In this document: positions 8,044 to 33,332 of the stretch, piece by piece
Layout: every line of letters begins with the position of its first letter
Position numbering within the stretch: the first letter of the stretch is position 1
Origin: a virus
Strand: one strand, 5' to 3'
DNA: 38,000 nt
Virus record (IMG/VR): IMGVR_UViG_3300035099_000676
Location: 1-38,000 of that record
The notes under the pieces: model-generated
What the model was told of the DNA's origin: nothing
The model's input: only the letters and a program-made list of their open reading frames with translations
Databases searched by the model: none
Program-made: the position numbers and the translations under genes

Positions 8044-8928
8044 TCACCATCCCTCGGGCCGCTGCGTCAGCCCCCGGGCGGTCGGGCGCTTCCGCACCTG
8101 CCACGCGATGCCGATCGCCATCACCCGGTCGTCGTGCTTGCCCTCAGCCGCCTCCTGCGACCCGGAGTCGGTGGTCACGAAAGTGAAGCACTCGTCCACC
8201 AGGTCCGCCGACATCATCCGCAGCGCGCCGGAGGCGATCGCCGCCGCCAAGTCGTCAACCAGGATGGGCTTCGTCGCCTGATCCGTGGGCCACCCCAGCA
8301 CAGGCGCCGACCGGCCCATGTGGTCGTAGCGGACGTGCGTGTAGAGCCGCGGGTAGCGGCAGACGTTGCGCAGCGTGTTCAGTGTCGAGTGCCCGTGGTT
8401 GTTGCGCTCCACCGCCACCCACGCCCAGTTGTACCACTTGCCCAGGGCGGCCAGCAAGTGTCCGAACCGCTCCGGCGCGATTCGCCCGTGCAGCTCGGCT
8501 GCCTGCGCCCCGCTCTCCTTGTCGAGCACGACTGCGGCCGACGCGTCCCCGCCAGCCAGTCCTTCGCCCACGTCCGCTCCGATGACGTACTGGCGACCCT
8601 CCTCCGGTTTCGCCCACACCACCAGGCGCGCGGGCGCGATCGGCAGCGCCTCCCCGCGCATGCCGGTCAGGGCGGTTACGCTCACCGCCGCCGGCGCCGC
8701 GGCGATCCGCGCTTGGGCCGCCCGCAGCGCCTCGGTGTCGAAGCAGCAGCGCCCGCTGGCCAGGAAGCAAGTGACGTCGTCCTCGGGGTACTGCTCAGCG
8801 AAGTGCGCGCCCAAGTCGCGCCGTTTCTGCCGCCGCCACTTGATCTGGCCTAAGGTCAGACCCCAGCGGCGAATCAGGGCGATCTCTTCGGTTGTGAGCG
8901 GTGTCACTTCCACGCCATCACCTGGCAC
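8044..8928 (-). CDS. terL: Terminase large subunit, C-terminal nuclease half (split gene)
   Basis: A 294-residue protein corresponding to the nuclease half of TerL, which cuts DNA at the start and end of packaging. After a linker (TTEEIALIRRWGLTLGQIKW, WRRQKRRDLG, YPEDDVTCFLASG) comes an RNase H-like nuclease with the expected acidic residues: D119 in VIGADVGEG, E174 in AVERNNHG, and D266/D267 in KHDDRVMAIGIAW. It lacks the ATPase domain, which is encoded by a separate gene at 10291-11049. A membrane pentapeptide gene lies between. GTG 8928 is the first start after that gene's stop and has only a weak ribosome-binding site. All key nuclease residues are intact, so the half looks functional. 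Confidence 0.85.
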   Translation of the reverse strand: MPGDGVEVTPLTTEEIALIRRWGLTLGQIKWRRQKRRDLGAHFAEQYPEDDVTCFLASGRCCFDTEALRAAQARIAAAPAAVSVTALTGMRGEALPIAPARLVVWAKPEEGRQYVIGADVGEGLAGGDASAAVVLDKESGAQAAELHGRIAPERFGHLLAALGKWYNWAWVAVERNNHGHSTLNTLRNVCRYPRLYTHVRYDHMGRSAPVLGWPTDQATKPILVDDLAAAIASGALRMMSADLVDECFTFVTTDSGSQEAAEGKHDDRVMAIGIAWQVRKRPTARGLTQRPEGW

Positions 8929-8965
8929 GGCTGGTCGCGCCCGTGCCCCAGACGCGTCCTGCAGT

Positions 8966-10180
8966 TCATCGCTTGAACCGCCGGTTCAGCGCCAGGATGA
9001 ACAAGGCAATCAGCGGCGGCCCGACCACCCCCTCCGCCACAGACAGGTAATGCCCCGCCGGATACACTGGCTGCAGTGGTCTGTCACCGCGGAGCAAGAA
9101 GCACATGACGGAGTACCAGAAGCGCGACCAGAAGCCCTCCATGGACAGCGATGCCGCCGAAGAAGGGCTGGGCTGGAGAGCGAAGGCCGGAATGCAGGTG
9201 AAGGCTAACGCAAAAGCGAGAACCATGCCCACGATCCACGCGCCCGCCCGGACGTAGTCCTCGCCGTACCCGCTGATCCATCGGTAGAACGCAATCGCAG
9301 ACAGGTAGCGCCTGTACGTGGCTCGTAGCCAACCCTTACACGGCTCAAGCCGCCGCATTTCCATCTCGCCGAAATGAAAGTCGCCGGCGGTGATGGGATC
9401 GCGCCGCTCCTCGTAGTTGTGCTTCAACTGCCGGTAAAGGTTACCGATCAGGGCGTAATCCTTCTCTTCGCCCTCTTTTTCGGACGTCAATTCATCCCGG
9501 ACCGCAAAGCGACCACCAGAACGCCTGGCCCACTCAACAGCCGTGAAGTCCACCTGCCGCACATCGGCGCCAAGGAATCGCGTCCGGCCAAGGAAGGCAT
9601 GTTGGAATAGGACTTTCTCCGACTGATGAAAGCGAGCCCACCTGAAATCGGCATCCGCTTCGCGGGAGAACACCCAATTATCTCGGTATCCGGCGAACAG
9701 CGCCGCGCCCTCGAACCTCGCCACGCTGAAGCTCGCCACGCTCTGGAACGTCGCTTGAGAGAACTGCGCCGCGCCCTGGAACGTCGCTGCGTAGAAGTTC
9801 GCCTCGCCCTGGAAGGTCGCGAAAGAGAAGTACGCCCCGCCCTGGAAGGTCGCCGCGTAGAAGTTCGCCTCGCCCTGGAACGTCGAATTGGTGAAGCGCG
9901 CCGCGCCCTGGAACGTCGCCCCCCGAAACCAGACCGGCCCGTCGAAAGCCCTGTTGCCGAAATCCGCGCCACCCGGAAATACAAAGCCGGTGAAGTCGTA
10001 GTCCTTGCGAGCCAGCATGGCCCGGATCTCGTGCTGGAAAGCTGCGGCGTCCTTGTCGGGCTTGTCGGAATGGCAGATGCACAATCCTTGCTCGTCATAC
10101 GGCTCCCGCCCGCAGCGGGTGCCGTCGTGCATCTCCACGGGGCACGTGGCGGCAGATTGCTTGGCCTCAGGCTCAGCCAT
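8966..10180 (-). CDS. Pentapeptide-repeat membrane protein inserted within terL
   Basis: A 404-residue protein with three zones. Residues ~14-45 carry a Cys/His cluster (CPVEMHDGTRCGREP, then LCICH) that may bind zinc. Residues ~65-175 are pentapeptide repeats of the ATFQG-A-F type, predicting a right-handed quadrilateral beta-helix. The C-terminal ~120 residues have a strong membrane segment (AGAWIVGMVLAFALAFTCIP), a semi-hydrophobic loop (FWYSVMCFLLRG) and a last helix (VVGPPLIALFILALNRRFKR), resembling two-helix ion-channel-like tails seen on some pentapeptide proteins but without a GYG filter. The start has an excellent site, GGGAGGTG, seven bases upstream. Its place between the two terminase halves is unusual. 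A membrane effector or superinfection/defence role is conjecture. Confidence 0.75.
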   Translation of the reverse strand: MAEPEAKQSAATCPVEMHDGTRCGREPYDEQGLCICHSDKPDKDAAAFQHEIRAMLARKDYDFTGFVFPGGADFGNRAFDGPVWFRGATFQGAARFTNSTFQGEANFYAATFQGGAYFSFATFQGEANFYAATFQGAAQFSQATFQSVASFSVARFEGAALFAGYRDNWVFSREADADFRWARFHQSEKVLFQHAFLGRTRFLGADVRQVDFTAVEWARRSGGRFAVRDELTSEKEGEEKDYALIGNLYRQLKHNYEERRDPITAGDFHFGEMEMRRLEPCKGWLRATYRRYLSAIAFYRWISGYGEDYVRAGAWIVGMVLAFALAFTCIPAFALQPSPSSAASLSMEGFWSRFWYSVMCFLLRGDRPLQPVYPAGHYLSVAEGVVGPPLIALFILALNRRFKR

Positions 10181-10290
10181 CGCTTTACACCTCCCCCAGT
10201 AGTGGCAGACGCTTTCGCTGGCTGGTCCTCAAGCCCCTGTATCTCATCTACCCAGTCGGCCGCAGCGGACGTCTTCAGGGGATCGTTGTC

Positions 10291-11049
10291 TCACACCCTG
10301 ACGGGAACTCCGGCGGATCTCAGTTGCTTGCTCCACGCCGCAATCTCCTCTGGCGTCGGCGGGATGGTGTATTCCGCATCCTCCCACCAGACGTAGAATT
10401 GCGGCGTGAATCGGTTCTCGCGCGCTTTCGCCGCCACCCACAAATCATGGAAGTAGTTGCCCACGCCGTTCGCCGTGGACTCGAGCACCACGCGGCCGTC
10501 GGCCGGCACCGCCTCCAGCAGGCCTACCAGCGACTCCTCCGGGTGCGTCCAGCGCGACACCTCGGAGCAGTGCAGGTTGTTGATCGTCAGGCCATGCCCG
10601 AACCGCGTGCTGCCGGCGGTCCCCACGAAGAAGGATGAATTCAACGCCTCCCACACCAGTTCCCGCCGGGTGTCGTATTTCGGTGTGCCGACCTTCAGCT
10701 TGACCACCGCCGGCAGCCGCTCCCAGAACAACTTCACGATCCCGAAGATCTTCTGAGTGCTCTCCAGGTCGTGGGCGATCAGCGCCGACACCGTGTTGGG
10801 CCGCAGCAGCGTGTCGGCGAAGAACATGGCGCTGATGAGCGTGGTGAACCCCAACTGCCGCGGCTTGAGGATGATGTCCCACGCGGTGCGGTGCTCCCAG
10901 TAGTCCCGCTGCGCCGCGTTGAAGTGCAGCGGGATGACGCGGCGATCCTTGGTGCGAATCCACAGGTAACGCTCGATCCAGCCCCGGGGATCGTCGCGCT
11001 CCTCAAGGATCTCCCTGATCTCGTCTCTCAGCAGGCTGGAGCAGCTCAT
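10291..11049 (-). CDS. terL: Terminase large subunit, N-terminal ATPase half (split gene)
   Basis: About 252 residues with the packaging-motor ATPase domain: AAQRDYWEHRTAWDIILKPR leading into the Walker A-like KPRQLGFTT (residues ~62-70), a Walker B-like stretch ending LHCSEVSRW, and the coupling-region motif VVLESTANGVGNYF. The frame stops after YVWWEDAEYTIPP plus ~20 residues, just where a normal TerL would continue into the linker and nuclease domain. That missing half is encoded at 8044-8928. The start is uncertain: ATG 11049 is used, overlapping the TerS end by 47 bases, and no good ribosome-binding site is visible. Coupled translation from terS is likely. Confidence 0.83.
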   Translation of the reverse strand: MSCSSLLRDEIREILEERDDPRGWIERYLWIRTKDRRVIPLHFNAAQRDYWEHRTAWDIILKPRQLGFTTLISAMFFADTLLRPNTVSALIAHDLESTQKIFGIVKLFWERLPAVVKLKVGTPKYDTRRELVWEALNSSFFVGTAGSTRFGHGLTINNLHCSEVSRWTHPEESLVGLLEAVPADGRVVLESTANGVGNYFHDLWVAAKARENRFTPQFYVWWEDAEYTIPPTPEEIAAWSKQLRSAGVPVRV

Positions 11050-11554
11050 CAAGGAAGTCGAGGGCCGCGTTGGCCTGCTCATCCGTGAGCTGCGCGAGGC
11101 GACGCTCGATCTCAAGTCCACCAATCAGCACCTCCTCGGGCACGCGCTTGACCACGCCCAGGGACTGCAGCAACTTCACGCGATCCTCGAGCGTGGTGAG
11201 AATGATCCGCAGGAAGCGGCCGCGCGCGGGCGATCCTTTCGGCGCCTCCATCATCTCCGCCCACGCCTGGCGCGCCACGGCGTTGGTCTCCTCGATGATC
11301 TCGGCGGCAGCGTCGAGCACGGCGGATTCGAGTTTGCCGCTCTGCTTCAGTTTCTCGTGGACGCGCTTTCGAACCGTCGCCAGGTCGCGGTCCACGGTGC
11401 GTTTGCTGACGCCCACCACCTCGCCGATCTCGCGGATGGTGAGTTTGCGCACCAGGGAGAGCGTCCACACGCGGGCGCGGCGATCCTCCACCGCCCGCGT
11501 TAGTTCGCCCCGCGTGCGCCCTCTCGTCGGCCCCCGCTGCGCCTCACCAGGCAC
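11003..11554 (-). CDS. terS: Terminase small subunit-like DNA-binding protein
   Basis: A 183-residue protein beginning with GTG at 11554 (GAGGGG upstream). Residues ~35-65 form a helix-turn-helix, KLTIREIGEVVGVSKRTVDR, followed by a long helical region (KLKQSGKLESAVLDAAAEII onward) suited to oligomerisation. Position just before the terminase ATPase gene, size and HTH-plus-helices layout fit a small terminase subunit, which recognises the packaging site and regulates the large subunit. It could instead be a regulator with a sigma-like HTH, but synteny favours TerS. Confidence 0.7.
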   Translation of the reverse strand: MPGEAQRGPTRGRTRGELTRAVEDRRARVWTLSLVRKLTIREIGEVVGVSKRTVDRDLATVRKRVHEKLKQSGKLESAVLDAAAEIIEETNAVARQAWAEMMEAPKGSPARGRFLRIILTTLEDRVKLLQSLGVVKRVPEEVLIGGLEIERRLAQLTDEQANAALDFLDELLQPAERRDQGDP

Positions 11555-11565
11555 GGATCAGCCCC

Positions 11566-13062
11566 TCAAAATTGCGAAATCGCGCCATTTCGCGCCACTT
11601 GTACGCTCTCGTGAGCGTGGTCGGCGAAGGTTTTCCCCGTCTCCATGTGGCGCGCCTGGCCCCCGGTCATGGTCTGCCACCGCTCAATCGCGACATCGCA
11701 GTAGCCTGGAAGCAGCTCCATGGCGACACATCTGCGCCCGTTCTGCTCCGCGGCGATGATGGTCGTCCCCGAACCGGAGAAAGGCTCGTAGACCAGCCCG
11801 CCTTCTTCGGTCGTAAGTCGCATGAAGAACGCCGGCAGCGCCACCGGAAACATGGCGGGGTGCGCCAGGCTTTCCTGGTTGCGCCCAAAGTGCTGCACGT
11901 TGCCGGGCCGCGCAATTCCGCGGGCCACGAGCGCCTGATCGGGCACCGAGATATTCCCCGTGGCGGGGTTGTAACCGCCGCCCCCAGGGCGATACTGCGG
12001 CACCTGCTCACTGACATGCCCCACCGCGCGCGGGCGGAACTTGATGCGAAACCGCTTGGCGAAGTGGAAGACGTCCTCGTACATCTCCGCCAGGTTGAAG
12101 TCGGTCTCGGCCAGCCAGTCGCGGTTCAGGTCCACGACCTGTACCATCCAGTTGACGGCGTCCTGGCGCGCGAAGAAGTGGATCGGCTCGAAGTCGTTGC
12201 GCAGCCGCGGGTAGTGCTCTCCCGGTAATCCAGGCTTGACCCAGATCAACTGGTCAACATAGCGCCACCCCGCCTCGACCATGGCGATCACCGTGCGCAT
12301 CACGTAGAGGCTTCGCTGCCCGTCCTCGACATGCTCTTTGATGTTGACGAAGAACGAGCCGGCCTCGTCGAGCGCGCGCCAGACCTGCGCCGCCACGCGC
12401 AGGAACCAGGCGGGGTAATCGGCGGCCGGGATGCCGCCGTAGGTGGAGGCGCGCTGCATGGCGTAGGGCGGCGATGTGACGCAGCAACCGGCCTTCTCGC
12501 CGGCCATGGGGCGATCCACGTCGGCGGCAACGGTGCAGTCCCCGCACAGCAGCCGGTGCTCGCCCAGCAGCCAGAGGTCGCCCGGGCGGGTGACCGGCTC
12601 CGCCGGGGCCTCGCCCGGGCCGGGATCTTCCCCCTGCGCCTGGTGCTGCTCGGCCTCGATGCGCTCCAGCAGCGCCCGCACCTCATCCTCGCCCCAGCCT
12701 GTGGAATCCAGCGTGCCCGCCTCCATGCGCTCGCGCAACAGCACTGCCAGGGCCTGATCATCGTCCTCGGCCAGGCGCACCGACTCGTTGTCGTCGACGA
12801 GGAACGCGCCCGGATCGCTGCCGTCATAGACGTGCACCCCGATCTCGGCGCAGCCCAACTGCCGCGCCGCCTCGACCAGGGCGTGGCCGGCCAGGATCAT
12901 GCCGTCCGACTGGATCACCACTGGCTTCTGCTGCCCATGGCGGCTGAGGTTGGCGCGCAGCGCCGCAATCTGCGCCTCCGGGTGGCTGCGATAGTTGCGT
13001 GGATTCGCCGCCAGCCGCTCAATCGGCCACCGCGGCCAGGCCGCGGTTGTCTCGACGCTCAT
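11566..13062 (-). CDS. ParB-like domain fused to DNA methyltransferase (N4/N6)
   Basis: A 498-residue two-domain protein. Residues 1-100 are ParB/Spo0J-N-like (LAANPRNYRSHPEAQIAALR, then KPVVIQSDGMILAGHALVEA). From ~165 on is an amino-methyltransferase of beta-type order: catalytic TSPPY at 196-200 and the S-adenosylmethionine site EPFSGSGTT at 426-434. Such fusions are common in phages, usually without a cognate restriction enzyme, and may protect phage DNA or mark packaging sites. N4-cytosine and N6-adenine cannot be distinguished here. The start at 13062 has GGGGAGGG upstream. The frame continues to 13125, but that extension covers a terminator hairpin. Confidence 0.85.
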   Translation of the reverse strand: MSVETTAAWPRWPIERLAANPRNYRSHPEAQIAALRANLSRHGQQKPVVIQSDGMILAGHALVEAARQLGCAEIGVHVYDGSDPGAFLVDDNESVRLAEDDDQALAVLLRERMEAGTLDSTGWGEDEVRALLERIEAEQHQAQGEDPGPGEAPAEPVTRPGDLWLLGEHRLLCGDCTVAADVDRPMAGEKAGCCVTSPPYAMQRASTYGGIPAADYPAWFLRVAAQVWRALDEAGSFFVNIKEHVEDGQRSLYVMRTVIAMVEAGWRYVDQLIWVKPGLPGEHYPRLRNDFEPIHFFARQDAVNWMVQVVDLNRDWLAETDFNLAEMYEDVFHFAKRFRIKFRPRAVGHVSEQVPQYRPGGGGYNPATGNISVPDQALVARGIARPGNVQHFGRNQESLAHPAMFPVALPAFFMRLTTEEGGLVYEPFSGSGTTIIAAEQNGRRCVAMELLPGYCDVAIERWQTMTGGQARHMETGKTFADHAHESVQVARNGAISQF

Positions 13063-13084
13063 GATCCCTCCCCGGCGGCCGGCA

Positions 13085-13122
13085 AACAAAAAGCCGCCCA
13101 CGATCTCAACACCGCAGGCGGC
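13085..13122 (-). terminator. Rho-independent terminator before methylase-terminase unit
   Basis: On the minus strand GCCGCC (13122-13117) pairs with GGCGGC (13098-13093), followed by TTTTTGTTT (13092-13084). It sits between a promoter (13132-13160) and the ribosome-binding site of the methylase gene, the same order as at the portal and capsid units, but with almost no leader between promoter and stem. Confidence 0.65.
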
Positions 13123-13131
13123 CACGCTCCC

Positions 13132-14639: not shown

Positions 14640-15299
14640 CTACTCAGCGTCCGGCACATGCTGGTTCGCCAAGTAGATCTCGCAGACTGCCGCCAGGCAA
14701 GCCCCGCGGCTCGTGCCGCGGCCGATCTGCCGCTTGGCATGTTCCATCGCACGCTCGAACACGGCGTATTCGGTGCCGACCAGCACGACCGTTACCGGAT
14801 GGGGGGCCGCCGCTTCCTGTTCCTGCGCCTGTTGGCGCAGTCCCGCCTGCAAGTCCGCCGGCAGTCGGAGAATCTCGAGCGAATCCTTCAGCTCCGTTTC
14901 CGACCAGGGCAGCATCCCGGCGAGGTCCTCAAGGGAGTAGGTCGCGCTGAGGTCGTGAAGTACTCCAGCCAGCCGCTGCGGCACGGGCTGCCCGCGCAGG
15001 TAGTTCAGTTGCAGCCCCCGGATCTTGGCCTCCTCGACGGTGATGTTCCAGACCTCGCACGGCAGTTCCTCGATTCCAAGATCGGCCGCCGCCTTCCAGC
15101 GGTGATAGCCGTCCACCAGCAGATAGCCTTGCCCTGAGCCTGTCGAAGGGTCGGCGGGCCGTTCCGGATCAGGCATGACCTTGAGCGGCTCCATGATGCC
15201 GCGCTCCCGGATGCTGGCTACCAGTTTCGGGTAGTTCTCAGGGTCGAAGGCGTTCGGATTCCACGGATTCTCACGGATCTTGTCGCGCCGGATCAGCAT
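14640..15299 (-). CDS. ParB-like partition/nuclease domain protein
   Basis: A 219-residue protein with an N-terminal ParB/Sulfiredoxin-like domain: IRENPWNPNAFDPENYPKLV, SIRERGIMEPLKV, then LLVDGYHRWKAAADLGIEEL, the VDGYHR box being characteristic. A HTH-like middle follows (SATYSLEDLAGMLPWSETEL). From ATG 15299 translation opens MLIRRDKIRE; the frame is open further upstream but has no better start. In the ParB domain the peptide DPSTGSGQ interrupts a conserved strand. It is the exact translation of a dispersed repeat (15131-15151) inserted in frame. ParB-like proteins in phages may bind DNA sites or act as CTP-dependent clamps; the role here is not known. Confidence 0.75.
   Translation of the reverse strand: MLIRRDKIRENPWNPNAFDPENYPKLVASIRERGIMEPLKVMPDPERPADPSTGSGQGYLLVDGYHRWKAAADLGIEELPCEVWNITVEEAKIRGLQLNYLRGQPVPQRLAGVLHDLSATYSLEDLAGMLPWSETELKDSLEILRLPADLQAGLRQQAQEQEAAAPHPVTVVLVGTEYAVFERAMEHAKRQIGRGTSRGACLAAVCEIYLANQHVPDAE
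15131..15151. repeat. Dispersed repeat, family 1 (copy 3), inside ParB gene
   Basis: GCCCTGAGCCTGTCGAAGGG. On the minus strand it is translated as DPSTGSGQ within the ParB domain, adding residues without breaking the frame. Confidence 0.7.
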
Positions 15300-15304
15300 C
15301 GCGC

Positions 15305-16534
15305 TTACACCCGTCGCTCTTCCATCGGCCAGAGGGGCATCCCATTGTTTCCACGCGGGATATCCGGGCGATCTGCCAGCTCGCGCGGAAGGGTAGGAAA
15401 CTGATGAAGAAGATGCCTCAGGCGTAGCTGTGCGTGCCCCACCCAGTATTGACAGTCGCGACGCCACTCCTGCTCCGTCTGATCTGCTCTTCGTGCCATC
15501 CACATCGAGACGTCGGTATACCATGCCGCAGCCCGGAGACAGAGTTCGTGCCGATGCTCCTCATCAAGAATCCCCAGCTTGTCGGCCGCTTCAGCGGCGA
15601 AGAAAAACAATTTGCCGGCCTCGTAAGCTGGCGGTTGGAGCCCGTCGGGGCCAAAGTGAAGCTGTCGTGCCGCCTCGAACGAGCCGAGCGCTGACTCAAG
15701 CAGCCGACGCCCTTCTTCCTCCGTCTTTGATCGGTCGTCAGCCGAGTGAAGTTGCGCGAGACCTCTATTGACATGCGCAGCAATGTGATTCGGATCCTTT
15801 GCCAGCGCGGCATCGGCATAGCGAATGGCATCCTCATATTTCCCGATATGGTCAAGGATGCCGGCAAGCTGGCTCAGACGATTCGGATCGCGCTCGTCTT
15901 CTGGCATCGCATTGACTGCCCGCTCCATCAGCTGCGCGCCCATATCGAACTTGCCCATGCTAACGGCAAGCTGTCCCAGTAGTGCCGTCAGATCGGGATC
16001 CAGCTCAAGCATTGGTGACTTCGTCACGCTCGTGAGGAAAGCTTGCACATTCTCCTGGGCATGTTCCATCTCCCTTAGACGGTCCTCGGCGCGAGTTTCA
16101 ATGGCTCGCAAGGCATTCTCGCCATTGGAGATCATCGTTTGCACCTTGTCCTCGGCCGCGAGGGCGGTGGAGAAGCGTGCTTCAGCTTCCTCGCGCAGTT
16201 TGTCCACCCTCATGATGGTCGCGTCCGCATCCCTCTTCAGATCGCGCAACGCATAATGCTGCCTCAGTGCGAAGGCGCCGGCGCCTATCGCAATGATGGC
16301 GAGGAGAAGCTGTGCAGTGGTCAGCGCAGCATCCGCCCGCGCCATGACGGACTCGGAGAACTTGAGGAGGAGATCTGTATCTCTCACCGGTGGCCCGCTT
16401 GTGGCCGCCATCAACAGGTCAGTCCGTATGTCTGCCACCAGATGACGGGCCCAGACGGCCCATCCCGCCACGATGAGCGCGGCGAGAGTTGCGACGATCG
16501 TCAAGGTCACCCACACGGGACATGGTTTCTGCAT
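15305..16534 (-). CDS. Membrane-anchored TPR protein
   Basis: A 409-residue protein from ATG 16534 (GGGAGG five bases upstream). Two membrane segments lie near the N-terminus (VWVTLTIVATLAALIVAGWA, residues ~8-28; TAQLLLAIIAIGAGAFAL, ~75-92). A charged coiled coil follows (RVDKLREEAEARFSTALAAE). Residues ~190-300 hold TPR-like units: LGQLAVSMGKFDMGAQLMER, AGILDHIGKYEDAIRYADAA, LAKDPNHIAAHVNRGLAQLH. It would place a protein-interaction platform at the membrane. It lies between HAD and ParB genes in the operon. Function unknown; such proteins are unusual in phages. A long overlapping upstream extension of the frame is a shadow of the HAD gene. Confidence 0.7.
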   Translation of the reverse strand: MQKPCPVWVTLTIVATLAALIVAGWAVWARHLVADIRTDLLMAATSGPPVRDTDLLLKFSESVMARADAALTTAQLLLAIIAIGAGAFALRQHYALRDLKRDADATIMRVDKLREEAEARFSTALAAEDKVQTMISNGENALRAIETRAEDRLREMEHAQENVQAFLTSVTKSPMLELDPDLTALLGQLAVSMGKFDMGAQLMERAVNAMPEDERDPNRLSQLAGILDHIGKYEDAIRYADAALAKDPNHIAAHVNRGLAQLHSADDRSKTEEEGRRLLESALGSFEAARQLHFGPDGLQPPAYEAGKLFFFAAEAADKLGILDEEHRHELCLRAAAWYTDVSMWMARRADQTEQEWRRDCQYWVGHAQLRLRHLLHQFPTLPRELADRPDIPRGNNGMPLWPMEERRV

Positions 16535-26425: not shown

Positions 26426-27085
26426 ATGAAGCGCGATGAGACGGAAGAAGATATTCAGCGGCGCTTGGGCCTGGAAGACCAGCGGGTTAAGGAAGTTCTT
26501 CGCCAGTGCGATGAACGCATCAAGGCGAAGGCGCTTGCCCATGTTCAGGATTTTGGCGCCCACGAGGCCATGGCCTGCGAATCGCCGGTAGAGTTCATGC
26601 TCTGTCGCGCTCTCTTCGATGTTTTCTTCTTTGACCTTCTCGATAGCGCGGTCAGCATCCGACCGCAAGTTGAGATAGACAGATATCGGGTGGACTTCGT
26701 GGTTCAGTTTACGGAGGTTGCGACGTCCCCTAGCTATCAATTCAGCGCGTCCCGCTTTGTGCAGTGGCTCAACCACTTGGAACGCGAGCATCCCGATGTC
26801 AAGAAACTCCCCGACTTGGCCAGGCTTCATCCCCCCAAGCCGATAAACCCGGATCTCAAGGTCGTCGTCGAATGTGATGGGCATGAGTTTCATGAGCGGA
26901 CGAAGGAACAAGCCCGCGCGGACAAGTCCCGCGACCGCGAGTTGACCGCTATGGGCTACACGGTGCTGCACTTCACGGGAAGCGAGATTCACGCAGATCC
27001 TTGGAAGTGCGCTCGCGAGGTGTACCGAGTCCTCATCGGGTACGAGCATGATGACTCGTGGGTCTTTGAGGACGAGGAGGCCTGA
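26426..27085 (+). CDS. PD-(D/E)XK nuclease-like protein (DUF559/Vsr-like)
   Basis: A 219-residue protein against the operon direction. The C-terminal domain has the DUF559-type core: an early acidic helix ESPVEFML (E56), RYRVDFVV (D90), and KVVVECDGHEFHERTKEQAR (E149, D151, H153), then AMGYTVLHFTGSEIHADPWK, the Vsr/DUF559 closing strand and helix. These are Mg-dependent endonucleases, some linked to restriction or mismatch nicking. GGGAGGTG precedes ATG 26426. A private promoter and isolation suggest an independently expressed cargo gene, possibly for exclusion of competing DNA; the target is unknown. Confidence 0.75.
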   Translation: MKRDETEEDIQRRLGLEDQRVKEVLRQCDERIKAKALAHVQDFGAHEAMACESPVEFMLCRALFDVFFFDLLDSAVSIRPQVEIDRYRVDFVVQFTEVATSPSYQFSASRFVQWLNHLEREHPDVKKLPDLARLHPPKPINPDLKVVVECDGHEFHERTKEQARADKSRDRELTAMGYTVLHFTGSEIHADPWKCAREVYRVLIGYEHDDSWVFEDEEA

Positions 27086-27111: not shown

Positions 27112-27990
27112 TCATCCCACTCGTCCTTCCTGGTAATCGCCGGCCGTGATCGGCGCCGGCTCGAGCATCTCGTTCAGCCGCCGCAGGATGCGATAGCCGC
27201 ATCGCCGCTCGAGTTGGCCCTCGTCGCAGTTGGTGGTGATGACGGTCGGCAACTCGCGGCGATACCGTCGGTCAACCAGCGCGTGGAGGCGATCGCGAAT
27301 CCAGTCACCGCGCTCGTCAGCGAGCAGCCGCTCCGCCCCGAGGTCATCCAGCACCAGCAGATCGGCGCGGCCGGCGAAGTCTTCGAGGTCCTCGGCGCTA
27401 TAGCCGCCGTGCTGCTCGATCCGATAGTGCGCGCGGAGCTGCTCAAGATAGTCGGGCACGCTGACGAACAGCGCCGAGTAAAACTTGCGGACGAGCGCAT
27501 TGACGCATGCCGCTGCCAGGTGCGTTTTCCCGCAGCCGTGCTCTCCGACGAGCAGCAGCCCTCGTCCCTCCGCATACCAGTCAGCCCAGTTATCCACCAG
27601 GTCGCGGCAGCGCTCCAACGCGAACTCCGTGCCGCCCACTGGCCGGAAGTTCTCGAAAGAGGCTGCCTCGAACCGCCGGTCCAGACGCGCCTCGTGGAAA
27701 AGCCGGTCGAGGCGATCTTGGTGCTCTTTGGCCGCCCGGGCGCGCTCCTGCTCCTCGCGCGCGCGGCGCTCACAATCACAGCCGGGCGAATAGACCTCCA
27801 GCACCCCGCCGCCCATGAACAGCGGCCGCGGGATCTCCCGACGCACCCTAGCGGCCCCGCAGTGGCTGCACGGCGGGGGAGGACCTTTCGGCTCGCTTGC
27901 GCGCCCACTTCTCGGCAGCCGCTTTTCCCTCTCCGCGGCGCGGGTTATTGGAGCTGCGTCCTCGTCCGTCATCTGCCGATTGCTGTCCAC
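27112..27990 (-). CDS. dnaC: DnaC/IstB-like helicase loader ATPase
   Basis: A 292-residue AAA+ protein that would load the replicative helicase at the phage origin. It has an N-terminal zinc-binding section (CSHCGAARV at 41-49, CDCERR at 71-76), then Walker A GEHGCGKT (149-156), Walker B LLVLDDLGAE (211-220), and VITTN in sensor I. The GTG at 27990 is preferred: GGAGG lies seven bases upstream. This makes it overlap the end of the initiator gene by about 140 bases. If ATG 27972 is used the overlap is slightly shorter. A helicase gene is not visible in the window, so a host helicase may be recruited. Confidence 0.83.
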   Translation of the reverse strand: MDSNRQMTDEDAAPITRAAEREKRLPRSGRASEPKGPPPPCSHCGAARVRREIPRPLFMGGGVLEVYSPGCDCERRAREEQERARAAKEHQDRLDRLFHEARLDRRFEAASFENFRPVGGTEFALERCRDLVDNWADWYAEGRGLLLVGEHGCGKTHLAAACVNALVRKFYSALFVSVPDYLEQLRAHYRIEQHGGYSAEDLEDFAGRADLLVLDDLGAERLLADERGDWIRDRLHALVDRRYRRELPTVITTNCDEGQLERRCGYRILRRLNEMLEPAPITAGDYQEGRVG

Positions 27991-28903
27991 GACGTTGCCT
28001 CCGTTCTTCGTCCCATTTGGCCTCCATCCGGAACCAGTTCCAGAGCTGCTGGCGCGGCCGCGCGTTGGGAAGCAGCGGCTCATCGCCGCGCCGCGTCACC
28101 CATGCGCCGACCACGTCCTCGAGGTGAACCTGCGGGAAGCATCGCTGCGCTCGCTCAAGCAGCGCGACATCAGCCGCGACATCCGCGGGATAGCCGGCGA
28201 CCGCGTAGAGTAGATCGAGGCAGCCGCGAAACTCCTCAGGGACGGCCGCGAGTTCAGCCCCTCCCCCCGCTCCCCCCTCCCGTCCCTCCTCCGTACCTCC
28301 GGGAGATGATTGCTTATCCTCCACCTCCGGAGGGAGGAGGCCTCCGCGCGTACGCGCGCGAGAGCGTAAAGATTCCGTAGTTCTTGCGGAACGATTACGC
28401 AGCGATTGCGTAATTTCTACGGAATCTGTGCGCAAGGATTGCGTAATCGGTGAGCCGCGGGCGGGGTGGTATCGCGCGAAATGCTCGCGAGTCTTCAGCG
28501 AACACTTGCCCAATATTCGAGGAGGTGGGGGAGGATATCTGGTCGCCGACGGCGAGGGGATGTACTGCTCGTCCCCCCAGTTCGGCAGCACCGCCCAGCG
28601 CATGGCAACGCCGCCCCGCCGTTCCGTCCAGACGAGAAATTCCCCGGCCTGCGTCAGGCGATCCAGCGACTCCTCGACCTGGGCGATAGTGAACATGCCC
28701 GCCTCCAGCAGGAGACCGATGGCCTCGCCGGCGACCTCGTGGGCGTTGTAGGGGAAGACCCCGAAATCATCCGCCACGCGATTCCAGCACGCATCGAAGA
28801 TATGAAATGGCAGCAGGTTCCCCATCTGCATGACCACCGTATTGAGCGTGCGGCTTGAGAATCGGTCGGGATTGCCTTGACGCCTTCTCCCGCTCAGTGC
28901 CAT
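27848..28903 (-). CDS. Phage replication initiator-like protein with internal repeats
   Basis: A 351-residue protein. The N-terminal ~120 residues (FSSRTLNTVVMQMGNLLPFH, EEVGEA-like helices, FTIAQVEESLDRLTQAGEFL) look like a winged-helix initiator/DnaD-type domain. A Pro-rich and repeat-bearing linker follows. A C-terminal helical domain (AELAAVPEEFRGCLDLLYAV, YPADVAADVALLERAQRCFP) precedes a basic tail. It sits just before the helicase loader, as phage O/DnaD-like initiators do. The linker encodes ITQSLR-type 11-residue repeats from three tandem 33-bp DNA repeats, a candidate origin. ATG 28903 has a better-spaced GAGGT than the ATG at 28915. Confidence 0.65.
   Translation of the reverse strand: MALSGRRRQGNPDRFSSRTLNTVVMQMGNLLPFHIFDACWNRVADDFGVFPYNAHEVAGEAIGLLLEAGMFTIAQVEESLDRLTQAGEFLVWTERRGGVAMRWAVLPNWGDEQYIPSPSATRYPPPPPRILGKCSLKTREHFARYHPARGSPITQSLRTDSVEITQSLRNRSARTTESLRSRARTRGGLLPPEVEDKQSSPGGTEEGREGGAGGGAELAAVPEEFRGCLDLLYAVAGYPADVAADVALLERAQRCFPQVHLEDVVGAWVTRRGDEPLLPNARPRQQLWNWFRMEAKWDEERRQRRGQQSADDGRGRSSNNPRRGEGKAAAEKWARKRAERSSPAVQPLRGR
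28349..28447. repeat. Three tandem 33-bp repeats: candidate replication origin (iterons)
   Basis: On the minus strand, units begin ATTACGCAATCCTTGCG (28447-28415), ATTACGCAATCGCTGCG (28414-28382) and ACTACGGAATCTTTACG (28381-28349). Exactly 33 bp each, about three helical turns, they encode ITQSLR-, ITQSLR- and TTESLR-type 11-residue units. Superimposed are two palindromes: ATTACGCA/TGCGTAAT (28394-28401, 28407-28414) and AGATTCCGTAG/CTACGGAATCT (28370-28380, 28417-28427). The block is AT-richer than its surroundings and lies inside the initiator gene, the arrangement known from lambda O/ori. Confidence 0.65.
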
Positions 28904-28929
28904 GATGACATCCACCTCTGTTGCTGCGA

Positions 28930-29187
28930 TTACCGCTGATCCTCCACCATTGCTGCCGACGGCACCGTCTCATCCTCGCTGAAGAGCTCCGGCTGCTCCA
29001 GCGTGATCTGCACCCGGACGCGCTTGCCGCGCAGCGCCCCGAGCGCGTCCGCCAGCTCGTGCGGATTGCCGTCCTCGGACACGAGCGAGATCACCGCCAC
29101 CGGGTCGCACCCGATGATCACGTCGCCGTCCTTCTCGTCCACGTACTTGATCGCCGGCTTCGCTACTGTCGCCATGAATGCTGGCAC
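28930..29187 (-). CDS. Small hypothetical protein before the initiator
   Basis: An 85-residue protein starting with GTG 29187, placed eight bases after a near-perfect AAAGGAGG. It contains VDEKDGDVIIGCDPVAVISL and RGKRVRVQITLEQPEL, reading as a small beta-rich protein, with acidic patches. It is 26 bases upstream of the initiator start. Unknown function; position suggests replication. Confidence 0.62.
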   Translation of the reverse strand: MPAFMATVAKPAIKYVDEKDGDVIIGCDPVAVISLVSEDGNPHELADALGALRGKRVRVQITLEQPELFSEDETVPSAAMVEDQR

Positions 29188-29229
29188 TTCTATCACCTCC
29201 TTTCGCGCGCGGTCTCATGAACTAGGAAA

Positions 29230-29257
29230 CCCTCCCTCCCCGCCGAAGAGGGAGGGG
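29230..29257. repeat. CCCTCCC/GGGAGGG hairpin
   Basis: CCCTCCCTCCCC followed by GCCGAAGA and GGGAGGGG, a GC-rich inverted repeat between divergently placed genes (29187 on minus, 29289 on plus). On the minus strand it is followed only by TTTCC, so it is a poor terminator. Confidence 0.5.
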
Positions 29258-29288
29258 AAGCCATCTCCATGCGGAGAGGGAGGGAATC

Positions 29289-29492
29289 ATGGACACGACA
29301 CAAGTGGTGGCCGCTGTGCTCGCGACAGCCGTCTACGAGCATCTGACATCCGGCCAGCGGACCGCAGGAACCGCGCTGAATGCGCAGACGCTGAGCAGGG
29401 CGGTCCCGGACATCATGCTGTGCTATCATGCTGTCCTCCGCCAGCTACAGCAGCCCCAAACACCGACAGGCAAGCCTGCACGCGCTCGCTGA
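29289..29492 (+). CDS. Possible small plus-strand protein
   Basis: A 67-residue frame with a very good ribosome-binding site (GGGAGGGAATC before ATG 29289). It begins MDTTQVVAAVLATAVYEHLT and has a helical, soluble composition. Its 3' third overlaps the convergent gene 29413-29715 by 80 bases, which lowers confidence in one of the two. No family recognised. Confidence 0.45.
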   Translation: MDTTQVVAAVLATAVYEHLTSGQRTAGTALNAQTLSRAVPDIMLCYHAVLRQLQQPQTPTGKPARAR

Positions 29493-29715
29493 GATAGAGA
29501 AGGTCGTGGGCCGCGGCCATGAGCACTGCAAGGTGAATGGCCCGACCGGGTTCGCTGCATCGGCCCTCCAGATCGAAGCCGGAATCGGCAGCGGGTAGAC
29601 TCCTCACCGCGCCGGCGAGCTGGGCAATCTGTCCAAGCGCGGCTTGCAGGTCTGCCGCTGCCTGCGCTTGCTCGATGGTCAGCGGTCTGCCAAGGCTTAC
29701 GTGGTCAAAGGTCAT
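29413..29715 (-). CDS. Small helical hypothetical protein
   Basis: A 100-residue protein from ATG 29715 (AAAGGGA upstream), beginning MTFDHVSLGRPLTIEQAQAA. It is alanine/leucine-rich and helical (DLQAALGQIAQLAGAV, AVLMAAAHDLLYLSERVQAC). Function unknown. A gap of 123 bases separates it from the membrane protein gene upstream, with no clear signal beyond a possible lone -35-like TTGACG. Confidence 0.5.
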   Translation of the reverse strand: MTFDHVSLGRPLTIEQAQAAADLQAALGQIAQLAGAVRSLPAADSGFDLEGRCSEPGRAIHLAVLMAAAHDLLYLSERVQACLSVFGAAVAGGGQHDSTA

Positions 29716-29838
29716 ATCGCATTCCCTTTCAATCCCGGGGGCAGCCTCGACGCACCCGACTACAGGCTGGTCGAGTGGGCGGCCGACGGTCCCGGTGCCG
29801 TCCTGACGCACTGCCCCTCGTCAAGTCCGGTCCGATCT

Positions 29839-29979
29839 CTACCGACCGCGCGGCCGGCTCCACCAGGCGAGCGCCGCGGGGATCACCACGCCGAGCAGCC
29901 ACGCGAGGCCGACAATCCCCACGAGCAGCGCCGCCGCGGCTTGGCGCATCTGCTGAATCGCATCCGCAAGATCTCCCAT
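29839..29979 (-). CDS. Small membrane protein (46 residues)
   Basis: The ATG at 29979 follows GGAGGAGG. The protein has a short polar start (MGDLADAIQQMRQAA) and one strong transmembrane helix (AALLVGIVGLAWLLGVVIPA) ending WWSRPRGR. It could be a holin-like or accessory membrane peptide, but its location in the early region argues against lysis. Confidence 0.6.
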   Translation of the reverse strand: MGDLADAIQQMRQAAAALLVGIVGLAWLLGVVIPAALAWWSRPRGR

Positions 29980-30067
29980 AGCCTCCTCCGGTTTTCTCCC
30001 TGTCGGATGGCCGTCCCAGGGGCGCCCTGGACGAGGCACGGAGGCCACACCTCGCCCGGCGCCCGCC

Positions 30068-30289
30068 TCAAGTCCGCCGCCGCTCCGCCTCCTCAACCAG
30101 CACCCGGTGCCGATACTGCCACCACGCCAATTCCGCTCGACGCCGCGCCGACGCATTCTCTTCCAGGCCCGCAGCGATGAGAATCACAGCGAACCCGGCT
30201 GCCATCCAGACCACGCGCCAGATCTCAGTGCCGCCGATTACCCACCAGCCCGCCAGCCACCACCCGCCAACCAGGGCCAGCGTTCTCAT
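30068..30289 (-). CDS. Small membrane protein (73 residues)
   Basis: From ATG 30289 (GGGAGG upstream; ATGA overlap with the preceding stop). It has two hydrophobic segments (LALVGGWWLAGWWVIGG and WRVVWMAAGFAVILIAAGLE) and a charged C-terminal helix (ARRRAELAWWQYRHRVLVEE). Function unknown. The long frame that contains it is otherwise a shadow. Confidence 0.6.
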   Translation of the reverse strand: MRTLALVGGWWLAGWWVIGGTEIWRVVWMAAGFAVILIAAGLEENASARRRAELAWWQYRHRVLVEEAERRRT

Positions 30290-30921
30290 CCGAGCCTCCC
30301 GGTATGCCAGTCCAAGTCGGCATCCGCGATCGCCGCGCCCAGCCGCTGGCGGATTAGCCAGTCCGCCACCTTGATCACCGAACCGCCCGCCTCGATGCCC
30401 AGGCACTCCTGGACGTCGTACGTGCGCGGTCGCAGGCGGCTCTTCGCGGCGACCGCCACCACCTTGCGGCCATGGTCGATTATTACGCCGATTGGCGCGA
30501 GTCGGCACAGGTGGGGTTTGACCGCATGGACCCCGCAAACGGCCTGGCCGTTCGCGCGCCCCAGCCACCGACATGCGCCGCCCGACTCTGCGGGAACGTA
30601 TAGGCCGCCGGGCCGCACCGCCGGCGGCGCGAGGCCATGCTGCCGCGCGTAGGCCGCGAGACGTTCGCCCTCGCCGCCCCACAGACGCTCGGGCGCGCGT
30701 CCGTGGCAGCAGTGCCCGCATCGCAGGCAGGCAAAGCGCACGGTATCGTCCAGTCCGACCGGGCGCAGACGGTGCCGGAACACAGCCTCCCATGCACGGC
30801 CGTAGGCCTCGCGGTGAATCGCCTCCGACAAGCCCTTGTCCGCGACCGTCCACCCGGCGGGCAGCCCTGCCGGTCCGGCGGACAGGTCATCAGTGACCGG
30901 GCGTCGCTGCATCTCGATCAC
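30286..30921 (-). CDS. CxxCxxCC (YkgJ/UPF0153-like) metal-binding protein
   Basis: A 211-residue protein. CLRCGHCCHG gives C65, C68, C71 and C72, the CxxCxxCC signature of YkgJ-type iron/zinc-chelating proteins. Further Cys occur in GGACRWL, AVCGVHAVKPHLCRLAP and VQECLG. The GTG at 30921 overlaps the SbcC stop as GTGA and has GGAGGTG five bases upstream. Function in phages is not known; co-translation with SbcCD hints at a DNA-metabolism link. Confidence 0.72.
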   Translation of the reverse strand: MIEMQRRPVTDDLSAGPAGLPAGWTVADKGLSEAIHREAYGRAWEAVFRHRLRPVGLDDTVRFACLRCGHCCHGRAPERLWGGEGERLAAYARQHGLAPPAVRPGGLYVPAESGGACRWLGRANGQAVCGVHAVKPHLCRLAPIGVIIDHGRKVVAVAAKSRLRPRTYDVQECLGIEAGGSVIKVADWLIRQRLGAAIADADLDWHTGRLG

Positions 30922-33332
30922 CGCAGCACCTCCATGCGGCTGCCGGCGACGTCCTTCGTCACCTCGATCCGGGCCGGGAAGAGGTCTTTCAGCTCCTCGA
31001 CGTGGGTGATGCACAGGACGCATGCGAAGTGCTGCGCGACACGGTCAAGGCACTCCACGAACAGCCGCCGGCCCTCTACGTCGAGCGGTGCGGCGGTCTC
31101 GTCCAACACCAGGAGTTCGCAGCTCGCGCCGGCCCTGGCAGCCAGCAGCCGGCTCAGGCCGATGCGCAATCCGAGGTCGACGCGCATGGCCTCGCCGCCG
31201 GAGAAGGTCTCGTATGGCCGCTCGCCGCGGTCATTGGCGACGATGATTGCGAGAGTCTCGCTCAGCGTCTTGGCCTGCGTCTCCCGCTGCGACCGCAGCG
31301 CAACGGTCATCCGGCCGTCGCTCAGCTCGCCCAGGACCTCGTTCGCCGCCGCTTCGAGGTCCGGCACGGCCTTATCAATCAGCAGCGCCGGAATACCGCT
31401 GCGGGAGAATGCGCCGGAGCGCGGATTGCCGAGAAGCTCCAGGAGTTGCAGCCGCTTCTGATGCTCCGCGATCTCTGCTTCGCGTGCCTGCGCGCGCTCT
31501 GCAGCTGCCAGGGCGGACTGAAAATGCGCCTGGTCGCGGCCCTGGCGGCCCTGCAGCTCCGCGATCTCCCGGTCATAGCGCTCGATGCCCGCTCGTGCGG
31601 TTTGAATGGCGGCCTCGACCTGGGCGAGCATCTTGTCGAAGCGTCGGGGGTCACCGACCTGCGCGGCCAGCTCTTTTTCCCGATCGCTCAGGCCGCGAGC
31701 ATCGGCTTCCCGCTGCGCCAGCGAGGCTTCGACCTCGGCCTTCTGGGCGGCTGCGACGTCAATCCCCCGCAACCGCTCCTGTAGGTCTGCGCGCTGCGAC
31801 GCCTGGCGCTTGGCCTTATCGTGCTCTGCCGAGGAATAGCCGAGGTTTGCCCGACGTTGCCCTACGGCTGCCAGTTCGACCTCAAGGCCTACCCCTGCCC
31901 CCGCCTGCTCCATCTCGGCCAAACGGGCGCGCTCCTGTGCCGCCACGTTGCCCTCTGCGGCGCGCAGGGATTCCATCTCGGCCTGTTTCTCGGCCCAGGG
32001 CATTGCTGCCTGAGCAGCTGTGAGGTCCGCGTACACGGCGCCGATGTGCGCCACGGCTTCGCGTGCCTGGGCGATCAGCGGGCATTTGTCTCGGATGGCG
32101 AAGAACGAAGGCCGGATCGCTTCGTCAAGCGGGTTCGCACAGGGTACTTGGTCGAGCACTTCCGCCTGCCCGGCGAGCCGCTCGTGCTGGTCGTCGAGCT
32201 GCGCGACCCGGTGGAGGTGAACCTCCCGGATGTGCGAGATCTCGTGTTCGAGGGTCGCGACCTTGTTGGCGTACTCCCGGCGCGCCGCGGCGATTGCGGC
32301 CTGTAATGCGCGATGCTCGGTTTCCCACTGCTGCTGGGCGGCCTGCATCCGCTCTCGGATGAGCTGCTCCTCATGGGCCAGCTCCTGATCCTGCTGCCGC
32401 AGCTTCTCAAGGCTGGCCACCACGTTCTCGGCTGCCGCGGCAACCTCGATCGTGCTCATGATCTGGGGCCGCTCGGCAATCGCAGTCTCGAGGCTCCGCA
32501 GCCGCCCGCGCAGTGATTCGGCCGCGGCCTCGGCCTCCTGCCGCCGACGCTGCACATCCTGGATCTGCTGCTGGAGCCCTTTGGCCGCCTCGCGCTCGGC
32601 GAGGATATGCTGCTTCGCCTCAGTGGCATCGCCGATCGCCTGTTGTTCTTCTAGCCGTTTGGCTTGGGCCGCGGCGATCGCCGCGGCTATCTCCCGCAGG
32701 GCCGCCTCGATCTCTGCGGCCAAGGCGGCCTCAGCGCGATCGGCCTCGATCTGGCGGTTGGTCTGCTCGATGCGCACTTGCAGTTCGCGCGCGGCCTGTC
32801 GCGCCGCTTCCGCCCGGCGCTCCCACGTCTCCAGGTCGAGGATCTCCCCGAGCACACGCTTGCGATCAGCGGGCCGCGCTTGGGAGAAGGCGGCAGCGTT
32901 GCCCTGGTTCGCGCAGGCGGTATGGACGAACAGGTCGTCCGTCATGTGGATGACCTGCTCGATGCGTTGCTGCGTCTCGTTGACCGTCTTGCCATCCAGG
33001 ACCACCGTTCCCGGGCCGTCCGGATTGGCGATCTGGAATGAGAGGGTCGTGCCCCCGCCGCCTTTTCGATTGCGCTGGCGGGAGACCAGGTAGTCGTCAT
33101 CGCCCAGGGCGAACTCGAACTCGACGCGCCCGACGTTCTCGCCCTCGGTGATCACGCTGTCCGCGCCCGCCCGGGCATAGCCCCACAGGGCGTAGCGCAT
33201 GGCGTCGATGATGCTGGATTTGCCCGCCCCGTTTGGCCCACTGAGAACCGCGAGGTTGATGCCGGAGAGATCGAGATCATGAGCGCCTCGATAACTCTGG
33301 AAATGCTCCAATCTCAACCGAATCGGCCTCAT
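30918..33332 (-). CDS. sbcC: SbcC/Rad50-type exonuclease ATPase subunit
   Basis: An 804-residue SMC-like protein. The N-terminal half-ATPase has Walker A SGPNGAGKSS (31-40) followed by the Q-loop region (YLVSRQRNRKGGGGTTLSF). Long coiled-coil arms flank a central Cys-containing turn (VPCANPLDEAIRPSF), equivalent to the Rad50 zinc-hook position but without a clear CxxC. The C-terminal half has the signature/Walker B segments RVDLGLRIGLSRLL and LLVLDETAAPLD. With SbcD it forms a nuclease that opens hairpins and resects DNA ends. ATG 33332 (AAGGAGG upstream) overlaps the SbcD stop as ATGA. Confidence 0.88.
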   Translation of the reverse strand: MRPIRLRLEHFQSYRGAHDLDLSGINLAVLSGPNGAGKSSIIDAMRYALWGYARAGADSVITEGENVGRVEFEFALGDDDYLVSRQRNRKGGGGTTLSFQIANPDGPGTVVLDGKTVNETQQRIEQVIHMTDDLFVHTACANQGNAAAFSQARPADRKRVLGEILDLETWERRAEAARQAARELQVRIEQTNRQIEADRAEAALAAEIEAALREIAAAIAAAQAKRLEEQQAIGDATEAKQHILAEREAAKGLQQQIQDVQRRRQEAEAAAESLRGRLRSLETAIAERPQIMSTIEVAAAAENVVASLEKLRQQDQELAHEEQLIRERMQAAQQQWETEHRALQAAIAAARREYANKVATLEHEISHIREVHLHRVAQLDDQHERLAGQAEVLDQVPCANPLDEAIRPSFFAIRDKCPLIAQAREAVAHIGAVYADLTAAQAAMPWAEKQAEMESLRAAEGNVAAQERARLAEMEQAGAGVGLEVELAAVGQRRANLGYSSAEHDKAKRQASQRADLQERLRGIDVAAAQKAEVEASLAQREADARGLSDREKELAAQVGDPRRFDKMLAQVEAAIQTARAGIERYDREIAELQGRQGRDQAHFQSALAAAERAQAREAEIAEHQKRLQLLELLGNPRSGAFSRSGIPALLIDKAVPDLEAAANEVLGELSDGRMTVALRSQRETQAKTLSETLAIIVANDRGERPYETFSGGEAMRVDLGLRIGLSRLLAARAGASCELLVLDETAAPLDVEGRRLFVECLDRVAQHFACVLCITHVEELKDLFPARIEVTKDVAGSRMEVLR

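What the first reader, a model, noticed from the sequence alone, without database searches (positions are those of the whole stretch)
28349..28447. Three tandem 33-bp iterons inside the initiator gene: candidate phage origin
Exact 33-bp periodicity, an AT-richer block, overlapping palindromes (ATTACGCA/TGCGTAAT; AGATTCCGTAG/CTACGGAATCT) and location in an initiator-like gene next to a DnaC-like loader together point to a lambda-type origin. The repeats also encode an 11-residue ITQSLR-type repeat, so protein and DNA constraints overlap.
Basis: partly seen in the sequence, partly recalled or inferred. Interest (0 to 1): 0.62.

Follow-up and report, generated by a model that had tools for sequence, protein, structure and literature searches.

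The report
Phage replication origin inside initiator gene
A short run of repeated, partly palindromic DNA in the middle of a phage's replication-starter gene is very probably the site where that same protein binds to start copying the phage genome, an arrangement known from phages lambda and SPP1 and here found to be common in distant phages too.

Summary
The repeat is real: three units spaced exactly 33 bp at 28349-28447, encoding an 11-residue repeat on the minus strand. The copies are diverged (23/33, 17/33, 16/33) and are better read as 10-bp half-sites (TTACGCAATC / CTACGGAATC) in both orientations, with strong dyad symmetry. They lie in the linker of a winged-helix initiator, directly upstream of a DnaC-like loader. 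The closest relatives found form a natural swap: L146 shares the window's C-terminal domain and loader subfamily (59%) but has another N-terminus and other repeats; L140 has L146's N-terminus and repeats but another C-terminus and loader. So repeats go with the DNA-binding half, loader with the C-terminal half, as in lambda O. Among 41 non-redundant initiators beside such loaders, 31 carry linker repeats beyond codon shuffles, against 1 of 70 control genes. Codons inside repeats are frozen (91% vs 57%; 11 of 11 clades). Best reading: an initiator-binding origin of lambda/SPP1 type, a new member of a known kind. Not shown: binding or firing for this array; no relative shares its N-terminus. Unlike lambda, no AT-rich opening element adjoins it; the array itself is the AT peak, next to a G-quadruplex motif.

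The parts
27848..28915 (-). Initiator gene (355 aa): N-terminal winged helix, repeat-bearing linker, C-terminal domain
   Evidence: ORF; phrog_2149 replication initiation protein, 2.7e-5; position next to loader; AF2 model
28595..28870 (-). Predicted winged-helix domain (residues 16-107), the presumed DNA-binding part
   Evidence: AF2 on 14-row alignment, pLDDT ~85 over residues 21-90; Foldseek viral hits named replisome organizer / replication initiator, E 0.005-0.2; DnaD N-terminal domain among PDB matches, Z 6.8. Weak matches, generic winged-helix arrangement.
28349..28447 (-). Repeat array: three 33-bp units, candidate origin
28415..28447 (-). Unit 1 ATTACGCAATCCTTGCGCACAGATTCCGTAGAA
28382..28414 (-). 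Unit 2 ATTACGCAATCGCTGCGTAATCGTTCCGCAAGA
28349..28381 (-). Unit 3 ACTACGGAATCTTTACGCTCTCGCGCGCGTACG (weak copy)
28437..28446 (-). Half-site TTACGCAATC (exact)
28404..28413 (-). Half-site TTACGCAATC (exact)
28371..28380 (-). Half-site CTACGGAATC (2 mismatches)
28417..28426 (+). Inverted half-site CTACGGAATC (2 mismatches)
28394..28414 (.). Palindrome ATTACGCA-5-TGCGTAAT
28370..28427 (.). Outer dyad: AGATTCCGTAG (28370-28380) and CTACGGAATCT (28417-28427), enclosing the inner palindrome
28258..28286 (-). G-quadruplex motif just 3' (gene sense) of the array, one of two in the window
   Evidence: role unknown
27905..28210 (-). C-terminal domain (residues 236-337), shared with L146 (35%), presumed loader contact
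27112..28083 (-). DnaC-like helicase loader (start uncertain; its 5' part overlaps the initiator's end)
   Evidence: phrog_50 4.1e-57; IstB/DnaC ATPase in Pfam

Best explanation
The block at 28349-28447 is the phage's replication origin core, built into the linker of its own initiator gene. The N-terminal winged helix binds half-sites TTACGCAATC / CTACGGAATC there, probably as dimers on dyads (inferred). The bound complex bends and opens DNA at or beside the array (inferred). The C-terminal domain, tethered by the linker, brings the adjacent DnaC-like loader, which places a DnaB-type helicase, presumably the host's (inferred). The peptide repeat ITQSLR is mostly a by-product of the DNA repeat. 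Shown here: anatomy, class-wide repeats in this position, linkage of repeats to the N-terminal half and of loader to the C-terminal half, and class-wide codon freezing. Not shown: binding, opening or firing for this array.
For: (1) Anatomy: repeat array with dyads in the middle of a winged-helix initiator gene directly upstream of a DnaC-like loader. (2) Class survey: in 41 non-redundant viral loci found by loader homology, 31 upstream initiators have direct repeats above all 40 synonymous permutations, vs 0 of 41 loaders and 1 of 29 downstream genes (Fisher 1e-17); all arrays peak at 0.33-0.56 of the gene. (3) In 24 of 32 of these the gene's AT-richest 50 bp starts at or just 3' of the array, 7.5 expected. 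(4) Natural swap among the closest kin: window vs L146, C-terminus 35% (2e-13) and loader 59%, N-terminus and repeats unrelated; L146 vs L140, N-terminus plus linker 80%, C-terminus unrelated, loaders 31%. (5) Over 129 swap pairs: linker 10-mers are shared in 13 of 33 pairs with same N / different C, but 2 of 96 with same C / different N. (6) At conserved residues codons are identical in 91% inside repeats vs 57% in the N-terminus, 11 of 11 clades; pairs within one N-terminal family but with different repeats show no excess (48% vs 50%), and there the recognition helix differs too. (7) In the window the array is the gene's AT maximum and a third-position GC minimum.
Against: No relative with this N-terminus was found, so conservation of this very array is untested. 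With the peptide fixed, direct repetition here is not above chance and the dyad excess is modest. No AT-rich element adjoins the array and no skew minimum is seen. Copies 1 and 3 share only half their bases. 9 of 41 surveyed initiators showed no repeat signal.
Confidence: 0.77

Rival explanations
1. Coding repeat only: the linker is a low-complexity protein segment grown by local duplication, and DNA similarity follows from the peptide.
For: Direct repeat pairs in the window equal the expectation for this peptide (9 vs 9.4); Ser, Leu and Arg codons of the three ITQSLR copies differ.
Against: Dyads exceed the peptide-fixed expectation (7 of 400) and the block has joint-lowest GC3. In the class, codons inside repeats are frozen and repeats exceed synonymous shuffles in 31 of 41 initiators vs 1 of 70 controls.
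Confidence: 0.12
2. Operator for autoregulation: the initiator binds inside its own gene to block transcription, not to start replication.
For: Binding sites inside a gene could act as a roadblock; palindromic sites resemble operators.
Against: No further sites with up to 2 mismatches upstream of the gene, 28916-31000; the only promoter-like site in 28000-29400 is on the opposite strand. Known relatives in arrangement (lambda O, SPP1 gp38) use such sites as origins. Both roles could coexist.
Confidence: 0.06
3. Site of another protein, for instance a partition site for the phage's ParB-like proteins, or an RNA hairpin in the initiator mRNA.
For: ParB-like domains are encoded at 11566-13125 and 14640-15524; the block folds strongly.
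Against: The ParB-like genes are 13 kb away; class-wide arrays change with the initiator's own N-terminus; no Rfam match above noise in 27800-29300.
Confidence: 0.05

Closest known systems
Phage lambda O protein and ori-lambda
   Same: Origin in the middle of the initiator gene; repeats with dyad symmetry; helicase-loader gene directly downstream; DNA-binding N-terminal and loader-contacting C-terminal halves (own knowledge); array length changes alter the protein (Stx phages: 6 iterons, 13 extra residues; PMC7466680). Anatomy: PMC5043065, PMC6022878.
   Different: Lambda has four 18-19-bp iterons plus a ~40-bp AT-rich opening region; here ~10-bp half-sites at 33-bp spacing, no AT-rich flank, a DnaC-like AAA+ loader instead of lambda P, and no sequence similarity to O found.
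Phage SPP1 gp38 (replisome organizer) and oriL
   Same: Direct repeats inside gene 38 bound by gp38; loader gp39 (PMC6316719).
   Different: SPP1 oriL has an AT-rich unwinding element and a second origin oriR; its loader gp39 is not shown related to this one; SPP1 also encodes its own DnaB-type helicase.
Initiators with linker repeats in other phages, e.g. Bacillus phage Palmer gp38, Pseudomonas phage JBD68 gp54, L018, L034, L077
   Same: Initiator gene with repeats in the linker and a DnaC-like loader next.
   Different: Other N-termini and other repeat sequences; most carry an AT-rich stretch at or 3' of the array.
Iteron plasmids (P1, R6K, RK2)
   Same: Arrays of initiator sites at an origin (PMC5043065).
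   Different: Plasmid iterons usually lie outside the rep gene (own knowledge), bind initiator monomers and are accompanied by DnaA sites (PMC5043065).

Membership tests
Lambda/SPP1-type intragenic phage origin | Repeats lie inside the initiator gene, between DNA-binding and C-terminal domains | tested here: met
   Array at residues 157-189 of 355; winged helix 16-107; C-terminal homology 236-337
Lambda/SPP1-type intragenic phage origin | Helicase loader gene adjacent | tested here: met
   phrog_50 DnaC-like loader, 4e-57, immediately downstream
Lambda/SPP1-type intragenic phage origin | Repeats are initiator-specific: they follow the N-terminal domain | tested here: met
   For the class: 13 of 33 vs 2 of 96 pairs; kin swap window/L146/L140
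Lambda/SPP1-type intragenic phage origin | Adjacent AT-rich unwinding element | tested here: not met
   3' flank at most 40% AT per 50 bp, 5' flank at most 48%; array itself up to 58%
Lambda/SPP1-type intragenic phage origin | Initiator binds the repeats and opens DNA | not testable with these tools
   Needs biochemistry
Lambda ori proper (lambdoid O family) | 18-19-bp iterons, each an imperfect inverted repeat | tested here: inconclusive
   Unit 2 holds a 21-bp dyad (8-bp arms); units 1 and 3 do not on their own, but pair across units
Lambda ori proper (lambdoid O family) | Initiator homologous to lambda O | tested here: inconclusive
   No Pfam family hit, no phage record by tblastn; weak phrog_2149 only
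Iteron plasmid origin | Plasmid-type Rep protein | tested here: inconclusive
   No Rep family among Pfam or PHROG hits; neighbours are phage genes
Iteron plasmid origin | DnaA boxes at the origin | not tested
   DnaA boxes were not scanned

The most novel reading that the evidence does not exclude
In this GC-rich phage group the origin lacks a flanking AT-rich opening element and instead opens at the repeat array itself (cruciform-prone dyads) or at an adjacent G-quadruplex / purine-pyrimidine tract, which would be a different opening step from lambda and SPP1. The G-quadruplex motif at 28258-28286 is one of two in 38 kb, and relative L146 has one on the opposite strand just 3' of its repeats.
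Probability: 0.18. Interest if true: 0.55.

Novelty: new member of a known kind. Interest (0 to 1): 0.42.

Why it matters
It places an origin in an uncultivated phage with no sequence-level relative of its initiator's DNA-binding half, from anatomy that can be checked at the bench. More broadly the survey suggests a usable rule: for tailed phages with a DnaC-like loader, the origin can often be read from repeats in the linker of the gene just upstream, and those repeats travel with the DNA-binding half. Pairs such as L033-type and L041-type initiators (same family, changed recognition helix, changed repeat) make the protein-to-site code of phage initiators directly testable.

Tried and rejected
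Relatives of the initiator by 8-residue patterns in viral and genome contigs, and tblastn against phages, whole and N-terminus alone: none. Relatives of the loader by single-sequence patterns: none; the four-row alignment worked. DNA pattern TTACGCAATC-gap-TTACGCAATC in viral contigs: 10 hits, of the order I would expect by chance (rough estimate, not computed), none in a recognisable initiator. tblastn with the repeat peptide: chance hits only. Two-row loader alignment: in viral contigs only L146's own contig again, in genome contigs none. GC skew as origin test: monotonic, uninformative. Portal relatives (68-81%) as kin: most records lack this initiator and loader; G004 (L140) was informative for the swap, and G005 (L144) carries a third N-terminus with another linker repeat. 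Rfam: nothing real. PDB fold search gave only generic winged-helix matches such as Fur and DnaD, E above 0.1, Z below 8, so no family is claimed from it. A blastp match of the window's linker to L140 (residues 190-242, 4.6e-4) is low-complexity Gly/Pro sequence run without filtering and was not used.

Full report
What is there. On the minus strand the ORF 28915-27848 encodes a 355-residue protein. Residues 157-189 are three 11-residue units, ITQSLRTDSVE, ITQSLRNRSAR, TTESLRSRART, written in three 33-bp DNA units at 28447-28349. The units are diverged: 23/33, 17/33 and 16/33 identities. The offset-33 identity of 40/66 compares with a window mean of 20.0 (sd 4.6), and only the 9.7-kb array elsewhere in the window reaches 39. 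Tandem Repeats Finder misses it. The unit is better described as a 10-bp half-site: exact TTACGCAATC at 28446-28437 and 28413-28404, and CTACGGAATC at 28380-28371 and, inverted, at 28417-28426.

Is it more than the peptide repeat? With the protein held fixed and codons resampled, direct repeat pairs are as expected (9 vs 9.4) but inverted pairs are in excess (20 vs 6.1 +/- 5.0; 7 of 400). The block has the joint-lowest third-position GC (0.42) of 5155 33-codon windows over 14 genes and contains the AT-richest 50 bp of its gene, 58% against a mean of 36%. So there is a DNA-level signal, of modest strength when the window is taken alone.

The gene and its neighbour. Pfam gives nothing for the protein; PHROGs gives a weak replication-initiation match, 2.7e-5 over residues 40-168. 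An AF2 model of residues 1-150 from a 14-row alignment of phage initiators shows a winged helix at residues 16-107, pLDDT about 85 over residues 21-90. Viral fold matches are weak but several are named replisome organizer or replication initiator. PDB matches are generic winged helices, among them DnaD's N-terminal domain at Z 6.8. Downstream lies a DnaC-like loader (phrog_50, 4e-57).

The class. A search with an alignment of DnaC-like loaders returned 80 viral loci. The ORF upstream of each loader was taken as the initiator and reduced to 41 at 60% identity. In 31 of 41, direct DNA repeats within 150 nt exceeded all 40 synonymous permutations of the same gene; this happened in 0 of 41 loaders and 1 of 29 downstream genes. 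Every significant array peaked between 0.33 and 0.56 of the gene. The AT-richest 50 bp of the gene began at or just 3' of the array in 24 of 32 cases, 7.5 expected, which is the lambda and SPP1 layout of repeats with an adjoining opening element (PMC5043065, PMC6316719).

Which half do the repeats belong to? Among pairs with similar N-terminus and dissimilar C-terminus, 13 of 33 shared more than 3% of linker 10-mers; among pairs with similar C-terminus and dissimilar N-terminus, 2 of 96 did. The linker touches both halves, so this asymmetry is informative, although pairs are not independent. The same swap is seen in the window's own neighbourhood. Portal relatives led to G004 (portal 68%), where the small ORF upstream of the initiator is 59% identical and an SbcC-type gene again lies upstream; a search with that small ORF also gave L146. 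L146 has the window's C-terminal domain (35%, 2e-13) and loader (59%) but an unrelated N-terminus and repeats built on GGTATCG/CGATACC. G004 (L140) has L146's N-terminus and linker (80%) but an unrelated C-terminus and a distant loader (31%). So repeats are inherited with the DNA-binding half, and the loader with the C-terminal half.

Is the DNA conserved beyond the peptide? For one divergent pair from each of 11 clades, conserved residues used the same codon in 237 of 260 positions inside repeats and 440 of 770 in the N-terminus; all 11 clades go the same way (sign test 0.0005). The pair nearest the window, L140/L146, is in the same direction but not significant alone (23/27 vs 63/87, p 0.14). 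The clade pairs were picked by hand from the table, as divergent pairs that share a repeat type, after that table had been seen; the full table (154 non-independent pairs) gives 96% vs 75%. A useful control: initiators of the L033 and L041 types share an N-terminal family but carry different repeats (GGTGGGGCAGGAG vs GGTGTAGGCCCAGAA) and differ in the presumed recognition helix (GRSTVKLHIRELE vs DRSTVRKHIKQL); between types, codon identity in the array is no higher than elsewhere (48% vs 50%).

Mechanism. Best supported: the N-terminal winged helix binds the half-sites; the complex opens DNA at or near the array; the C-terminal domain delivers the loader, which loads a DnaB-type helicase. Steps shown by sequence: position, repeats, dyads, module linkage. 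Steps inferred from lambda and SPP1: binding, opening, loading. What does not fit lambda: no AT-rich flank (3' at most 40% AT), and instead a G-quadruplex motif at 28258-28286(-), one of two in 38 kb; L146 has one on the opposite strand just 3' of its repeats. Within the survey such motifs are rare (3 of 41 initiators), so this is a lead, not a feature of the class. GC skew has no minimum in the record and says nothing.

Known or new. Origins inside initiator genes are textbook for lambdoid phages and known for SPP1; in Stx phages extra iterons add residues to O (PMC7466680). This is a new member of that kind, in a phage whose initiator N-terminus has no detected relative. The survey's breadth is the more useful result; literature searches did not turn up a systematic survey of this kind, but the library lacks most subscription journals, so novelty of the survey is not claimed.

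Limits. No relative shares this N-terminus. The upstream ORF was taken mechanically as the initiator. The permutation test used 40 shuffles per gene. Homologous loci are not fully independent even after clustering.

Noticed in passing
window 8044-11124 (-): The terminase large subunit appears split: ATPase-like ORF 10291-11124 and nuclease-like ORF 8044-8928, with ORF 8966-10180 (phrog_15350 C-terminus) between them; the latter holds 33/66-bp tandem repeats at 9695-9920.
   Followed up: no
window 27848-28083 (-): The loader ORF's 5' part overlaps the end of the initiator gene in another frame; L146 has a similar overlap of about 185 nt.
   Followed up: no
window 28258-28286 (-): G-quadruplex motif GGGACGGGAGGGGGGAGCGGGGGGAGGGG directly 3' of the array; one of two in the window. 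L146 has one on the opposite strand at the matching place.
   Followed up: partly
L033, L035, L081 vs L041, L051, L052 (initiator genes): Natural specificity switch: same N-terminal family, altered recognition helix, different linker repeat, nearly identical sequence beyond the repeats.
   Followed up: partly
L069, L077 (initiator genes): Linker repeats at irregular spacing (LVITS motif in L077) with very high direct and inverted repeat counts, inverted 136 and 173 vs 28 and 48 expected.
   Followed up: no
L013 5099-5140: Two ATTACGCAATCGTGCGTA-like sites, close to the window's inner palindrome, in what looks like non-coding DNA of another viral contig.
   Followed up: no
L012 5640-5665 (-): Five tandem 16-bp units of ACTTACGCAAGCGGCC type, apparently not in a long open frame.
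   Followed up: no
window 28930-29196 (-): Small ORF just upstream of the initiator, conserved in G004 (59%) and L146 (about 60%), no family assigned.
   Followed up: partly
window 26426-27085 (+): Opposite-strand ORF with a DUF559 / MTES_1575 nuclease-like domain beside the loader.
   Followed up: no
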